Assembly (NCBI GenBank): GCA_937949535.1
Contig: CALEDI010000228.1
Span: forward strand, 1 to 39,978
Reading direction: 5' to 3'
Origin: an uncultured Lewinella sp.
GTDB taxonomy: Bacteria > Bacteroidota > Bacteroidia > Chitinophagales > Saprospiraceae
Length of the DNA stretch: 39,978 nt
Numbering within the stretch: position 1 is the stretch's first letter; the number at the start of each line of letters is the position of its first letter. Shown here one piece after another: positions 3,290 through 34,677 of this stretch. Made by a program: the position numbers and the translations under genes. The notes under the pieces are model-generated. The model searched no databases and was not told where the DNA came from. It was given only the letters and a program-made list of their open reading frames with translations.

Positions 3290-3313
3290 AACGTGAGGTT
3301 TGCCCATAAGCAC
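3290..3313 (+). repeat. Left arm of GTGAGG palindrome
   Basis: The 24 bases are identical to positions 14566-14589 of the intact copy. The next bases (AGGGCGCTTC) match that copy only loosely (CGGACGCTCA), so the left and right arms around the IS may come from different repeat copies or have diverged. Confidence 0.8.
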
Positions 3314-3370
3314 AGGGCGCTTCAGGACCTCCTTTAGCTTTGCAGAAGAACGAATTAGAAAGAAATTGAT

Positions 3371-3422
3371 ATTTAATATCGGCGGTCGTCTCATCAAGAG
3401 ACGACGACCGTCGAGATTAAAT
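3371..3422. repeat. Long hairpin in the IS 5' region
   Basis: An imperfect inverted repeat of about 20 bp per arm (core CGGTCGTCTC and GAGACGACGACCG, outer TTTAAT and ATTAAA) surrounds the loop ATCAA. It lies between the left palindrome arm and the transposase. It could be part of a structured non-coding RNA of the IS or an unrelated palindrome. No reading frame covers it convincingly. Confidence 0.6.
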
Positions 3423-3648
3423 GTTAATTTCCCCCACACCAGATTTTGGAACAAAACAAGACTCGTTGAACTATCGGAGGTAAACTAATAGGATCTCCAT
3501 ACGCCACTTCTAACGAAAAAGGCTAAGCTTCGATTCAGCACCTTCGATAGTTTATGATTCGCCCAAACCCATATAGCAATCCATCTTCACAGTAGTAAAG
3601 GAGGAGGGAAGCGAATTAATCAACGAGCCTCATAATATTTCACAAGAT

Positions 3649-4656
3649 ATGTTATTTTCTATCATTATTGGAGTAGACAGCGCCAGCGAGAAGTTCGATT
3701 GGCACGCCCTAGATGCCCAAGAAGTTGAGCTCGGCTACGCGGAGACCAAGAACACCTCCACGGCCATTCAGACTCAGTTCACGAAGCTGTGCCAAGACCA
3801 TAAAGTACGGCCTGAGAAAGTGTTGGTCTGTATTGAAAATACGGGCCTGTACTCTCTTCGATTAGCTTACGAATTGTATTTGAAGAAGTTCTCCGTATGG
3901 ATGCAAGACGCCTTTCATCTAAATCACTCTATCGGCCGTGTCAAGGGTAAGACGGACAAACTCGACGCTTATCGCATTGCCAAGTATGCAGTGCGTAACG
4001 CTAAGGATTTCAGTGCCTTCGTCCCCAATTCCAAAGCCTTAACAAAGATTAAAACGCTAATGAGCCAACGCAAGAGAATGGTTAAAGCCAAAAACTTGTT
4101 GATGGTGCCCATCAACGAAGAGCGTAAGCACAATCCTCATGATTTATCGGACTGTTACGATGAAACGGATGCTGTAGTGGCCTTGATAAAATCGACGATT
4201 AAAGCACTGGACAAGAAGATCGATAAAGCGATCAAAGCAAATTCTGAATATCGTAAGACGTACGAGATCCTACAATCCGTAACGGGTATTGGTTCCTTAA
4301 CGGCTAGGCTATTGATTGCCAAGACCAACAATTTTGCCAATGGTCTGGAAGGGCGAAAACTCTGCTCTTTAGCTGGAGTAGCTCCTTTTCCTAGAGAATC
4401 GGGAAAGTGCCTTAAGAAGAGGCCCAGTAATGGAAGTAGCTCGGATCGAGAACTGAAGAGTTGCCTCTACCTAGGAATGTTGCGCCAAATAAAAATGGAC
4501 AACAAGATGAGCAAATACTACGCCAAAAAAAAGGCTGAAGGGAAGCACCACAATAGCATCATAAATGCAATGGCCAACAAGATTTTACATGCAGCAATTG
4601 CCTGTCTGAGAAAAGGAGTTATGTATGACGAAAATTATACACATAAACTTGCATAG
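3649..4656 (+). CDS. IS110-family transposase (DEDD)
   Basis: The 335-residue recombinase moves the surrounding IS. The N-terminal RuvC-like DEDD domain shows GVDSA (first Asp), CIENTGLY (Glu) and GKTDKLDAYRIA (paired Asp). The C-terminal Transposase_20 domain shows SVTGIGSLTARLL and LCSLAGVAPFPRESGK, followed by a Ser-rich stretch (NGSSSDRELK) where the family's catalytic serine is expected. No frameshift or stop interrupts it, so it may be active. Codon use looks more AT-rich than the neighbours, consistent with transfer. Family members are known to use a non-coding bridge RNA; here the only sizeable non-coding part is upstream of the gene. Confidence 0.93.
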   Translation: MLFSIIIGVDSASEKFDWHALDAQEVELGYAETKNTSTAIQTQFTKLCQDHKVRPEKVLVCIENTGLYSLRLAYELYLKKFSVWMQDAFHLNHSIGRVKGKTDKLDAYRIAKYAVRNAKDFSAFVPNSKALTKIKTLMSQRKRMVKAKNLLMVPINEERKHNPHDLSDCYDETDAVVALIKSTIKALDKKIDKAIKANSEYRKTYEILQSVTGIGSLTARLLIAKTNNFANGLEGRKLCSLAGVAPFPRESGKCLKKRPSNGSSSDRELKSCLYLGMLRQIKMDNKMSKYYAKKKAEGKHHNSIINAMANKILHAAIACLRKGVMYDENYTHKLA

Positions 4657-4674
4657 ATCATAGCAATCGAAGCG

Positions 4675-4750
4675 TTTATTTCTGCCTCTGACGAAGTCGA
4701 GGTAGAAATAATCCTTTGAGCGTCCGGTGCTTATGGGCGAACCTCACGTT
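4675..4750 (+). repeat. Inner hairpin and right arm of GTGAGG palindrome
   Basis: Positions 4675-4711 form an inner hairpin (TATTTCTGCCTC paired with GAGGTAGAAATA, loop GAA). Positions 4715-4750 are the complement of the arm seen at 14566-14601, with one difference. Together they form everything of the palindrome except its left arm, which is replaced by the IS. Confidence 0.75.
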
Positions 4751-12700: not shown

Positions 12701-14566
12701 GAGGTGACTACTTCCAATAGCTGTGTTGCACAGAGCTTCGGTACGATTGTCAGCCCCGGAGAAGTTTTCCTTGAGGAGTTTTCGCAAAACAATCCGCAGT
12801 GCCCTGATGATGCTAACGGAAGCATTTTCCTTACCCCCGGTGGGGGTACTCCGAACGGAGACGGGACCTACAACTACGTTTGGTCTACCGACCCCAACGG
12901 AGCCCCGACAACGAACCCAGCGTTTACCAACCTCAGGGCGGGCACTTATACGGTTACGGTTACGGACGCTAACGGCTGTCAGCCTCCCTTTGATACAACC
13001 TTCGTTTTGGTAGACCCACCACGCATCACGGGCACATGGCAACTAACGCCCGTAAGCTGCCCCGACGACCTTACGATGGACGGCGCGGCAACCTTCACCG
13101 CAGCGTATGAAGACGGAACCGTTTCCAGCTACGACTTCGAGTTTTCCTCCGGAACGGAAATAGTGAACAGAACTATGGCTACCGAAACCGGACTACCCCG
13201 AGGGCTAATTGCCGTAGAAGTTAGTGATGGCACCTGTTCGGAAACGTTCACGGATACCATCCGGAGCCCCGATGAGTTTGCGGTGGAGATCGTCACCAGT
13301 CCCATCAGTTGTAATGGACTTACAGACGGAGGCGCGGTAGTGAACATTAGCGGTGGTACGCCTGGGTATACCTTTGGTTGGTCCGTCTCGGCGGATACCG
13401 ACAACACCGTGGAGGGTTTGGCCTCTGGAACAGGTTTTACGGTTGAGATAACGGACGACAACGGATGTTCGCCCGGAACCCAAACCTTCAACATCCCCGA
13501 ACCAGACCCGCTAACCCTTTCTATAGACCCTGTAACAACTACGCAAACAGTACGCTGTGCGGGAGACATGAACGGCCAGATCAATGTATTCGTTAGTAGC
13601 GTCAACAACAATGACCTAGCCACTAACCCGTATAGTTGGTCTGGGAACGTTGCAGGGCCAAACGAATCAAGTGCGACAAACCTTTCCCCCGGTGCTTACG
13701 GCATAACGGTTACTGATGTGGAGGGCTGTCAGGACAGCCTCACCTACATAATCGGAGAGCCAGAAGCAATTATTTTTAGCGTACTCCCGATTGAAGAGCC
13801 GCTTTGTTTTGGCGAAACGACTCCGATATTGGTAGATACGGCCTTTGGTGGTACGTCAAATGGTATCGGAGACTTCACCTTCTCTGTAAACAACGATGGT
13901 TTTCGGGTTCCCGTTGGGCAAACCGGGACCGCCTTTGCTGGGGAGGTAGTTGTGACGGTCTTTGATAGTGTAGGCTGTTCGGCGGAGCAGACCTTTAGCG
14001 TGAACCAGCCACCACAGGTATTGATTGACCTTCAGGAGGAGATTGTGATAGAACTTGGAGACAGCCTTACGCGCTTGAACCCACTCATCAGCCCTGCTGG
14101 CGACGTGTATGAATACCTCTGGACGCCCGGAGATTTCTTGAGTTCGGACACGGTCCGTAGCCCATTGATCTATCCGTTTGAAAGCCTGGACTACCAGTTC
14201 CGCGTGACCAACGCTAATGGGTGCCAAGCGTTCGCGAACATCTTCGTTGAGGTAGACGCGAACAGGAACGTTTACATCCCGAACGTATTCAGCCCCAACC
14301 GTGATGGTAGGAACGAAGATTTCCGAATCTTTGCCTGCCAAGGTGTACAGCTCGTAAAGTCTGTTCAGGTTTATGACCGTTGGGGAGCTGTTGTGTTTTC
14401 AGAAGACAACTTTGAGCCCAACTGTTTGGACGGGATTCAGCTTTGGGACGGCAAAGGGCAGAACGGAGAAACCGTTAACCCTGCGGTATTTGTCTACATC
14501 GTTGAGGTCGAATTCTTGGACGGTGTAACGTTGGTCTATCGGGGCGATGTAACGGTACTTCGATAA
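9728..14566 (+). CDS. SprB-repeat surface adhesin with cohesin-like domain and T9SS type B sorting domain
   Basis: A 1,612-residue secreted protein. The ATG at 9728 gives a good signal peptide (TLRSLSLLCLIFCLLAPLGLLA^Q). Residues about 338-475 (ARGLPGEQVCVDI ... VVGFQFDIEFDPSVLQF ... SICFTILG) resemble a cohesin-type beta-sandwich. Eleven SprB-type repeats follow from about 480 to 1435, each opening with a Cys motif such as SCNGFDDGSI or TCITGNDGTV and ending in a Y-x-V-T-V-x-D-x-x-G-C pattern. The last roughly 110 residues (NVFSPNRDGRNEDF ... VQVYDRWG ... WDGKGQNG) are the gliding-motility-type C-terminal domain that directs T9SS export and surface retention. SprB-like adhesins serve gliding or attachment; that role here is inferred. 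A large hairpin repeat begins at its stop codon. Confidence 0.9.
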   Translation: MHHGYTLRSLSLLCLIFCLLAPLGLLAQRPHTVKVPEQSAVVPSSEKMECNDAGEIGQFSGFMMQSNSFGDNLTPSDVIQYNLWPKDTIFLCFGDEFTVNIASGSEDLSGDPNTATTPGVGYAFYNCAPLEDGPILTDIAADFCVTNNGLDPFDDLTIAVPSGYETGDYTLTVANDVQGGLTIPGLFPNAMAEPTPVILTLAPITFDRAAAGVAEYEDGGQCVNVSTDQTFTVAFLNPITLSNLDMAPVDCVGTFEIRGGAPELLGTNDYNIEIVNEVTGERAVILTPASQIRHNAPIFYQVPTAGNYSISIDDDGVGCSMVDNIIVNHPTGCPLPVVFNIERARGLPGEQVCVDIMPENFIDVVGFQFDIEFDPSVLQFDNASNLHPNLSAASFAFSGPPTLPAGTARFLYSDLTLSGADIPSNEAVFSICFTILGNLGDQSDVSAVINTSSFTRSPTQTGILVVNSGSVVVTDKAFLVTLDKTNETCNGDNTGVIFAEALGGASPYIFSRRRISPVPEAIFTDDQTRTGNPASVNYFAREDGVYAIRVVDANGAEVIDTIEVEAGLAIGVNVEVISPPSCNGFDDGSIRAVVFEDGVEVVSPLAAGYSFSWEGSSATGDIRTGLVADQYEVTVTSPEGCSSDDRGNLNQPSDVRVRPDNPDDAVSSATCTSTPDGSITITADGGTGPYDFMWGGTLGTDDDAAMSTRNGLLPDEYAVIVADVNNCRDTANFVVDAQKQLIINSEVDSASCFGISDGVIRVNGSVTGAMAVLPYEVTLLDEFGAVIQATQPIVDNSLPFVFSGLSAGRYVVVLDDQDPAMGCEVTDTFEIFQPSVLVIDNNLMITNETCITGNDGTVTAAVSGGTMPYEFRFVNDSLDVRMDTMPPNGSLTGLSADPNYILIVTDQNGCEARVDFRINAPESATLGVIDTSFITCPGDNDGILTVVATPPTGETITSIFWFILNADGSRGAQVASGPSTLNNLDVGNYLVEVTTSNSCVAQSFGTIVSPGEVFLEEFSQNNPQCPDDANGSIFLTPGGGTPNGDGTYNYVWSTDPNGAPTTNPAFTNLRAGTYTVTVTDANGCQPPFDTTFVLVDPPRITGTWQLTPVSCPDDLTMDGAATFTAAYEDGTVSSYDFEFSSGTEIVNRTMATETGLPRGLIAVEVSDGTCSETFTDTIRSPDEFAVEIVTSPISCNGLTDGGAVVNISGGTPGYTFGWSVSADTDNTVEGLASGTGFTVEITDDNGCSPGTQTFNIPEPDPLTLSIDPVTTTQTVRCAGDMNGQINVFVSSVNNNDLATNPYSWSGNVAGPNESSATNLSPGAYGITVTDVEGCQDSLTYIIGEPEAIIFSVLPIEEPLCFGETTPILVDTAFGGTSNGIGDFTFSVNNDGFRVPVGQTGTAFAGEVVVTVFDSVGCSAEQTFSVNQPPQVLIDLQEEIVIELGDSLTRLNPLISPAGDVYEYLWTPGDFLSSDTVRSPLIYPFESLDYQFRVTNANGCQAFANIFVEVDANRNVYIPNVFSPNRDGRNEDFRIFACQGVQLVKSVQVYDRWGAVVFSEDNFEPNCLDGIQLWDGKGQNGETVNPAVFVYIVEVEFLDGVTLVYRGDVTVLR

Positions 14567-14676
14567 ACGTGAGGTTTGCCCATAAGCACCGGACGCTCAA
14601 AACGTTCGACTGAAATGCCTAGTGTAGATGGCATTTTAGTCGATCCTTTGAGCGTCCGGCACCCCAACCTCACGTT
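14566..14676. repeat. Intact GTGAGG palindrome (about 111 bp)
   Basis: The outer stem is AACGTGAGGTT at 14566-14576 with AACCTCACGTT at 14666-14676, then CGGACGCTCAAA with TTTGAGCGTCCG (14647-14658). The inner stem TCGACTGAAATGCC (14606-14619) pairs with GGCATTTTAGTCGA (14630-14643). The outer arm starts inside the adhesin stop codon, so the hairpin could serve as its mRNA end, although no T-run follows. Arms of the same repeat flank the IS110 element at 3290 and 4715. Confidence 0.85.
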
Positions 14677-14804: not shown

Positions 14805-14826
14805 CCTTTGCACCTGCGGCCGCGCC
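14805..14826 (-). repeat. NotI-site dispersed repeat, copy 3 (inverted)
   Basis: The plus strand reads CTTTGCACCTGCGGCCGCGC, ending 28 bp before the parC ATG. Its orientation relative to the gene is the same as for copies 1, 5, 6 and 7. A -7-like TATCTTCG lies upstream at 14742-14749, so the repeat is probably in the transcript leader. Confidence 0.8.
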
Positions 14827-19767: not shown

Positions 19768-19787
19768 AAAGTTTTCGGCAATGTTGG

Positions 19788-19983
19788 GAACTAGGATGAT
19801 AAGAATGTTGGTAAAGTTGCCACGAAACTCGACAGGCGAACTTTTTCGCCACGTAAAGAACTCGTAATTCCTAGGGTGTAATATATTCATGTGGAACTAA
19901 ACATGTACCCAGTTCTATAAGCGAAAAAGAATTCGACTGGCGAGTTTGGAGAAGTTCATCAAACATTCTTATCACCCTAGTTC
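19788..19983. mobile_element. MITE-like element with 22-bp terminal inverted repeats
   Basis: A 196-bp non-coding segment is bounded by inverted repeats: GAACTAGGATGATAAGAATG with two further bases (19788-19809) and its complement at 19962-19983, with one mismatch in 22. Subterminal inverted repeats ACTCGACAGGCGAA (19827-19840) and TTCGACTGGCGAGT (19932-19945) lie inside, plus a TTTTTCGC/GCGAAAAA pair. No reading frame of note is inside. A non-autonomous transposable element is the simplest reading; a large regulatory hairpin upstream of the next gene is the alternative. Confidence 0.65.
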
Positions 19984-19991
19984 GGAACCGC

Positions 19992-21313: not shown

Positions 21314-21580
21314 GCTATCGCGTAGCGATTACCTCTCTCACCTCCAACGTCCGCTATCGCGTAGCGATTACCCTTCAGATAACCCCGGACGTAGTCCGGG
21401 GTACTCACCTCCCCGGACGCAGTTTGGGGCCTCTCTCTCACCCGCTATCGCGTAGCGATTATCCCTCGGATCTCTCCGGACGCAGTCCGGGGTACTCACC
21501 TCCCCAGACACCGTCCGGGGTACGCACTCCCTCCGGACGCAGTCCGGAGTATTCATCTCCCCTCGGAACGCAGTCCGAAA
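21314..21580. repeat. Array of two alternating short palindromes
   Basis: Motif A, GCTATCGCGTAGCGATTA, occurs exactly three times (21314-21331, 21353-21370, 21444-21461). Motif B, a CCCCGGACGCAGTCCGGGG-type palindrome often followed by TACTCACCT, occurs about six times with variation (near 21383, 21411, 21475, 21502, 21531, 21562). The stretch fills nearly the whole gap between the small membrane protein and the pseudouridine synthase. It holds no plausible gene. Confidence 0.85.
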
Positions 21581-34583: not shown

Positions 34584-34600
34584 GTGTAAAAATTTGGATC

Positions 34601-34655
34601 GAGTGCCTCTGGCGCGATTATTTAAGGAAAAATCGCGCCAGAGGCACTCAACCCA
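34601..34655. repeat. GGGTTGAG hairpin, copy A
   Basis: GAGTGCCTCTGGCGCGATT (34601-34619) and its exact complement (34631-34649) form a 19-bp perfect stem with an 11-nt loop, then CAACCC. The motif recurs at 21083-21106 and 39797-39820. It lies just upstream of the pyrD promoter box. Confidence 0.85.
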
Positions 34656-34677
34656 ACTAAAGAAGGTTTAAATAAAA

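What the first reader, a model, noticed from the sequence alone, without database searches (positions are those of the whole stretch)
3290..4750. IS110-family element split into a palindromic repeat
The IS sits between a left arm (3290-3313) and the inner hairpin plus right arm (4675-4750) of a palindrome that is intact at 14566-14676. Some IS110-family elements are known to target REP-like or other structured repeats through a bridge RNA. This would be a clean example with an uninterrupted reference copy in the same window. The left arm diverges after 24 bases, so insertion into one copy or recombination between two copies are both possible.
Basis: partly seen in the sequence, partly recalled or inferred. 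Interest (0 to 1): 0.65.

Follow-up and report, generated by a model that had tools for sequence, protein, structure and literature searches.

The report
RNA-guided IS110 targeting cloverleaf repeat hairpin
A jumping DNA element in a bacterium carries a guide RNA that matches one hairpin of a repeat scattered through its host's genome, and every copy we could see sits in exactly that hairpin, which makes it a clear natural case of a known kind of RNA-guided insertion.

Summary
The observation largely holds. An IS110-family element (3332-4666, one 335-aa recombinase) lies inside a dispersed repeat. Full copies of the repeat are about 187 bp, fold as a three-armed cloverleaf and have MITE-like ends. 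The element splits the central hairpin at CAGGACC-TC-GAAGC. All 8 IS ends found in this genome (4 left, 4 right) are at that site; 34 uninterrupted matches to the site remain. The IS leader folds like a bridge RNA: its target loop fits both half-sites (15 of 16 points) and its donor loop the IS's own ends. Among 18 elements compared, 11 fit their own leader best, and guide and target change together. The mechanism is most likely IS110 bridge-RNA targeting of a host repeat, as known for IS621 and REP sequences. The 14566-14676 copy is a deletion derivative without the target hairpin, so it is no empty-site reference. The window copy is not a simple insertion: its flanks come from opposite orientations of the repeat, so it is probably a recombinant or an assembly join. 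Extra: the repeat core is a four-way framework with variable side hairpins under different ends, and joined IS ends form a Bacteroidota-like promoter.

The parts
3290..3331 (+). Left flank: outer arm of the repeat (plus orientation, deletion subtype) ending in the left half of the target, CAGGACC + core TC
   Evidence: the same subtype without IS is seen at C78 (L003) and, more diverged, at C330 (L004)
3332..4666 (+). IS110-family element (1335 bp) between two TC cores
3335..3342 (+). TAGCTTTG at the left end: candidate -7 box; its -33-like TTG (4649-4651) lies in the right end, 20 bp away only across the joined ends
   Evidence: consensus from PMC7366714 (passages)
3332..3648 (+). Non-coding leader holding the predicted bridge RNA (long 5' hairpin, target loop, donor loop)
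   Evidence: 3322-3648 folded, z -6.1; 3430-3630, z -3.7
3489..3497 (+). Left target guide TAGGATCTC (target CAGGACCTC; two C-to-U changes allow G.U pairs)
3527..3533 (+). Right target guide GCTTCGA, exact reverse complement of TCGAAGC
3572..3581 (+). Left donor guide TATAGCAATC (IS right end CATAGCAA-TC, 9 of 10)
3595..3602 (+). Right donor guide GTAAAGGA (IS left end TC-CTTTAG, 7 of 8)
3649..4656 (+). IS110 recombinase ORF, 335 aa
   Evidence: a profile of it and six relatives matches ISCro4 (7.3e-37) and IS621 (5e-36)
4667..4750 (+). Right flank: core TC + GAAGCG, side hairpin 1 and outer arm of the repeat (minus orientation)
14566..14676 (+). Deletion derivative of the repeat (outer arms + hairpin 3 only); lacks the IS target hairpin

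Best explanation
This is an IS110-type element whose bridge RNA, encoded in its 5' leader, directs a circular copy to the central hairpin of a dispersed cloverleaf repeat. The target is CAGGACC-TC-GAAGC. The hairpin is a palindrome, so the target is present on both strands, and IS ends are found in both orientations relative to the repeat. Shown here: homology of the recombinase, one common junction for all IS ends found, guide-target and guide-donor complementarity, and joint change of guide and target in relatives. Inferred: excision as a circle, expression of the bridge RNA from a promoter that the joined ends build (TTG-N20-TAGCTTTG), and RNA-guided strand exchange at TC. The window copy itself was probably altered after insertion by recombination with another occupied repeat, or was joined so in assembly.
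For: A search with the IS body alone (all 26 candidates scored) finds 7 places at E below 1e-20 and the next at 0.2; they give 4 left ends (C228, C328, C120, C223) and 4 right ends (C228, C57, C317, C87), and all 8 lie at the one site. 34 uninterrupted matches to the site within 2 mismatches, 26 of them exact, control 0. Own target against own leader 15 of 16 points, reached by 0 of 200 shuffled leaders and by none of 17 other leaders. Of 18 elements tested, 11 fit their own leader best. Donor guides are also present. Relative G013 (45% identical protein) has nearly the same ends but guides GGTTCTC/GCTTGGA and target GGTTCTC-CAAGC; its 13-mer, up to 1 mismatch, has 23 matches in G013 (control 3) and 1, 4, 2, 2 in G010, G014, G018, G001 (controls 1, 6, 4, 1). 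In 8 aligned leaders 7 of 9 pairs of the target-loop stem keep pairing through changes on both sides. TTG lies 18-22 bp upstream of the left-end TA in 16 of 18 joined ends but in 3 of 21 integrated left flanks.
Against: 7 of 18 elements did not rank first against their own leader (ranks 2-4); for G001b, G190, G001a, G365 and G316, 40, 20, 18, 7 and 6 of 200 shuffles did as well. Relatives that share guides may explain part of this. The 18 elements were picked by visible ends, and no tree-aware control was run. The stem count comes from the folding program without a control (the attempted count failed). Six of the eight IS ends lie on contigs that stop inside the IS, so left-right pairs are unknown. 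There are no RNA or circle data, and no test for terminal inverted repeats of the IS was run.
Confidence: 0.93

Rival explanations
1. The recombinase recognises the hairpin or cruciform structure itself, and the RNA match is incidental.
For: The target sits in a very stable hairpin (a full copy folds with z -14.2); IS110-type elements in other bacteria are often in REP sequences (PMC1525189, passages).
Against: Guide and target change together in relatives whose targets differ in sequence, e.g. G013, G051, G227, G172, G023.
Confidence: 0.04
2. The palindrome arms are the IS's own ends: one composite mobile element that carries the repeat with it.
For: Inverted arms bracket the IS in the window.
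Against: The repeat occurs without IS in many places. The repeat flanks next to the IS differ between IS copies (hairpin 3 side, hairpin 1 side, deletion subtype) while the IS-target junction stays constant.
Confidence: 0.02
3. About the window copy only: it is a simple insertion into an unusual repeat that already had two left-type arms.
For: Other deletion subtypes exist (106-150 bp), so an odd parent copy is possible. Lack of a direct repeat is weak evidence: 12 of 20 complete IS-free copies also show none of 6 or more bases.
Against: No IS-free copy with this arrangement is among those printed. The flanks (left ...TAGAAATA, right TGTAAAG...) show no direct repeat. The right-hand neighbour (SDR-like gene) was not found within about 1.5 kb of the aroK-like gene in any of 17 relatives' loci (tblastn), though such neighbours change easily.
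Confidence: 0.2
4. About the window copy only: the contig is an assembly join of two IS copies.
For: Six other IS ends lie on contigs that stop inside the IS; the first 129 and 118 bp compared of the IS are identical in C120 and C223.
Against: The right end carries one base not seen in the three other right ends, and the left end differs from C328 at 2 of 270 positions, so the assembler had something to separate copies by.
Confidence: 0.35

Closest known systems
IS621 (IS110 family, E. coli) and its bridge RNA
   Same: DEDD/Transposase_20 recombinase, leader RNA upstream of the ORF with target loop then donor loop, dinucleotide core, insertion into a fixed site of a palindromic genomic repeat (REP), promoter built by the circle junction (PMC11208160, passages)
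   Different: Core TC and target CAGGACC-TC-GAAGC; the target is the central hairpin of a ~187-bp cloverleaf MITE-like repeat, not a REP; the candidate junction promoter has the Bacteroidota form; the host is probably a Neolewinella
ISPpu9, ISPpu10, ISPa11 in Pseudomonas REPs
   Same: All annotated copies in one repeat family: 7/7, 7/7 and 6/6 in PMC1525189 (passages)
   Different: ISPa11 belongs to the IS1111 group, where the RNA is downstream of the transposase gene (PMC11187229, passages); here it is upstream
Natural reprogramming of seekRNA, ISEc11 and ISXne4
   Same: Related elements with changed guides and matching changed targets (PMC11187229, passages)
   Different: That pair is discussed around the IS1111 member ISEc11; here it is the IS110 type, and at least in G000 and G013 the target is a multi-copy sequence of the host itself
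MITEs and other bacterial palindromic repeats
   Same: Short, inverted ends, short direct repeats, many copies
   Different: Modular cloverleaf core with constant stems and variable side hairpins, seen under several different outer ends; mover not found

Membership tests
IS110 family | DEDD N-terminal and Transposase_20 C-terminal domains | tested here: met
IS110 family | No target duplication beyond a short core shared by both ends | tested here: met
   TC at both ends of the window copy and at all other IS ends in this genome
IS110 family | Long non-coding leader upstream of the ORF with target and donor guide loops | tested here: met
IS110 family | Circular intermediate and junction promoter | tested here: inconclusive
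   Promoter-like motif across the joined ends; no circle or RNA data
IS110 family | Catalytic DEDD and serine residues | not tested
   Residues were not mapped one by one
IS1111 subgroup | Guide RNA encoded downstream of the gene | tested here: not met
   Guide matches lie upstream; only 10 bp separate the stop codon (4656) from the IS end (4666)
IS1111 subgroup | Sub-terminal inverted repeats of 11-13 bp | not tested
   No search for short inverted repeats at the IS ends was made
MITE (the target repeat) | Inverted ends and target-site duplication | tested here: met
   Ends AACGTGAGG/CCTCACGTT; direct repeats of 6 or more bases in 8 of 20 complete copies against a mean of 0.44 (maximum 4) in shuffled pairings
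MITE (the target repeat) | Related autonomous element that moves it | not tested
   No dedicated search made
REP (the target repeat) | Small palindrome of 20-40 bp | tested here: not met
   About 187 bp with three inner hairpins; REP size from the abstract start of PMC3733652 in the listing

The most novel reading that the evidence does not exclude
In Neolewinella and its relatives, one lineage of IS110 elements keeps its ends and donor loop nearly fixed while its target loop is rewritten species by species to match each host's own abundant intergenic hairpin repeat. These repeats thus act as a shared set of landing pads that guide turnover tracks. In this species the pad is the central hairpin of a modular four-way-junction repeat whose side hairpins and outer ends are exchangeable, offering two opposed target sites per copy and so promoting inversions and hybrid loci.
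Probability: 0.4. Interest if true: 0.6.

Novelty: new member of a known kind. Interest (0 to 1): 0.42.

Why it matters
It gives a natural series of IS110 elements in one group of bacteria with similar donor ends and changing guide-target pairs, useful for learning bridge-RNA pairing rules (wobble, guide length, core choice) and how such elements pick safe landing sites. It also suggests a Bacteroidota version of the circle-junction promoter, and an unusual modular cloverleaf repeat that deserves its own study.

Tried and rejected
Rejected: 14566-14676 as the intact reference (it lacks the target). Rejected: repeat arms as IS ends. Rfam on the window gave only a tRNA at E up to 1, and on five loci with the repeat or a relative IS only one match far below its gathering score. 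A genome-collection search with the single protein found no relatives (records of this genome or very near it may be left out there). Synteny did not settle the hybrid question: the SDR-like gene was not found in any of 17 relatives' loci with the aroK-like gene. Both gene names are my own reading of the sequences; no family search was run on them. A first count of direct repeats used a fuzzy end search that shifted borders (4 of 26 with 5 or more bases against 0.48); it was replaced, which took 28 loci and recognised both ends in 20 copies. Elements for the guide test: 32 loci were examined for ends, 19 had recognisable ends on both sides, and 18 were scored (G335 dropped because only 6 bases follow its right end); ends were chosen by eye and motif. 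The first own-genome search for the IS included repeat flanks and scored only 40 of 86 candidates, so I repeated it with the IS body alone, all 26 candidates scored.

Literature: six searches showed no report of this element or cloverleaf repeat in the listings seen; only open papers are held, and the junction promoter in Bacteroidota was not searched for by itself. No paper was read whole; passages only.

Full report
What is there. The window (contig C228 of a 4.09-Mb, 335-contig, 88% complete genome) holds one IS110-family element. Its ORF 3649-4656 matches DEDD_Tnp_IS110 and Transposase_20, and a profile of it with six relatives matches the solved recombinases ISCro4 (E 7.3e-37) and IS621 (E 5e-36). 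The genus search held 21 genomes, own included. One sister genome, G002, carries a contig of the same length (17,414) and repeat position as a contig of Neolewinella agarilytica DSM 24740, so the host is most likely a Neolewinella; the name rests on that match alone.

The repeat. Full copies are about 187 bp and fold as a cloverleaf: an outer stem and three hairpins (DNA fold of one copy, z -14.2). The outer ends are AACGTGAGG/CCTCACGTT. Of 20 copies with both ends recognised (28 loci given), 8 have flanking direct repeats of 6 or more bases, against a mean of 0.44 and a maximum of 4 in shuffled pairings; 12 do not. It therefore looks like a MITE. The middle hairpin (H2) reads ACGCTTCGAGGTCCTGAGTACGCTTCAGGACCTCGAAGCGT. 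Several deletion subtypes exist. The copy at 14566-14676 keeps only the arms and hairpin 3.

The insertion site. Left junctions read CAGGACC-TC-CTTTAG and right junctions ATAGCAA-TC-GAAGC. A search of the genome with the IS body alone scored all 26 candidates and found 7 places at E below 1e-20; the next best has E 0.2. They give 4 left ends (C228, C328, C120, C223) and 4 right ends (C228, C57, C317, C87), and all 8 lie at this point of H2, so at least four IS copies exist. H2 is a palindrome, so the site is present on both strands: two left ends and one right end use the plus strand of the repeat, two left and three right ends the minus strand. The 13-mer AGGACCTCGAAGC matches 54 times (control 0; a copy can give two), and the uninterrupted minus-strand site 34 times within 2 mismatches (26 exact, control 0). 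Some of these lie at contig ends with the same sequence (for example C243 and C262), so the true number may be a little lower. C120 has a second repeat family inserted next to the IS junction.

The guide. The leader folds well (3322-3648, z -6.1; 3430-3630, z -3.7). Its target guides TAGGATCTC (3489-3497) and GCTTCGA (3527-3533) fit the target with 15 of 16 points (wobble counted half); none of 200 shuffled leaders and none of 17 other leaders did as well. Donor guides TATAGCAATC and GTAAAGGA match the IS's own ends at 9 of 10 and 7 of 8.

Relatives. IS110 homologues were found in 14 of 59 relatives besides the own genome, and with a profile in 85 of 398 family genomes, own included, at E up to 1e-15. 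Of 18 elements with two recognisable ends, 11 fit their own leader better than any other leader; the other 7 ranked 2 to 4, and for G316, G365, G001a, G190 and G001b 6, 7, 18, 20 and 40 of 200 shuffles did as well. G013, the closest relative (45% identity), has nearly the same ends but target GGTTCTC-CAAGC with guides GGTTCTC and GCTTGGA. Up to 1 mismatch, that target has 23 matches in G013 (control 3), and 1, 4, 2 and 2 in G010, G014, G018 and G001 (controls 1, 6, 4 and 1). Right ends in G010 (the 4 read; one search lists further matches there) read TC-CAAAAG and in G014 (3 of 3) TC-GCAGGTGCA. The latter resembles an interspersed repeat with 7 copies in this window, 5 of which hold GCAGGTGCA exactly. 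In 8 aligned leaders 7 of 9 pairs of the target-loop stem keep pairing through changes on both sides (no control run).

Promoter. Joining the right and left ends of 18 elements puts a TTG 18-22 bp upstream of the TA of the left end in 16 of 18 (the other two have one at 24); background for a window of that width in the right ends is 0.14. In the integrated state 3 of 21 left flanks have it. This agrees with the Bacteroides consensus, TAnnTTTG at -7 and TTTG near -33 (PMC7366714, passages), though not perfectly: 10 of 18 left ends match TAnnTTTG exactly and 5 of 18 have the full TTTG at that distance. Junction promoters are known for IS110 elements (PMC11208160, passages).

The window copy. Its left flank is the plus-strand arm of a deletion subtype (C78 is an IS-free copy of that subtype), and its right flank is the minus-strand hairpin-1 side. 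There is no direct repeat, which alone says little since 12 of 20 IS-free copies lack one too. The SDR-like neighbour was not found beside the aroK-like gene in 17 relatives' loci (gene names are my reading). So this copy is probably either a recombinant between two occupied repeats or an assembly join. The IS's first 129 and 118 bases compared equal those in C120 and C223, and the right end has one base not seen in three other right ends; this does not decide between them.

The repeat core. The framework GACGCTCAAAGGA-hairpin-ACGCTTCGAGGTCC occurs in 4 of 21 genus genomes (G000, G002, G007, G009; exact pattern) with different side hairpins and different outer ends. In this genome it also appears inside an element with ends GGTGATAAGAATGTTGGT (L146) and a diverged form of it cut by a contig end (L144). 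The IS target lies in its central hairpin.

Comparison. That IS110 elements are RNA-guided and often sit in repeats is established (PMC11208160, PMC11187229 and PMC1525189, passages). This is a new member of that kind with a new target type.

Noticed in passing
L146 (C68), L144 (C300), L093, L104, L172: A modular four-way-junction repeat core with constant stems and exchangeable side hairpins occurs under at least three different outer ends; what moves it is unknown.
   Followed up: partly
window 403-39803, 7 places (family D1), and an inverted copy near 14808: Interspersed repeat GGCGCGGCCGCAGGTGCAA (5 of 7 copies hold GCAGGTGCA); in sister genome G014 an IS110 relative sits at TC-GCAGGTGCA, so a similar repeat is a bridge-RNA target there.
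   Followed up: partly
window 19783-19988: 206-bp element with inverted ends resembling GGTGATAAGAATGTT/AACATTCTTATCACC, like those of the second family that carries the cloverleaf core.
   Followed up: partly
window 21314-21562: Cluster of short palindromes (GCTATCGCGTAGCGAT and CCCCGGACGTAGTCCGGGG types) in tandem.
   Followed up: no
L002 (C120), left of the IS: A further palindromic element with ends CAAACCGCTATACAT inserted in hairpin 2, apparently with an 8-base duplication (GTCCTGAG), read by eye.
   Followed up: no
L007, L020 (C179, C108) and L140 (C104): Contigs share the same left flank of the repeat, and C179 and C108 have different right flanks: recombination between repeats or unresolved assembly.
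   Followed up: no
window 34594-34656: 29-bp inverted repeat with a 5-base loop, 90% complementary.
   Followed up: no
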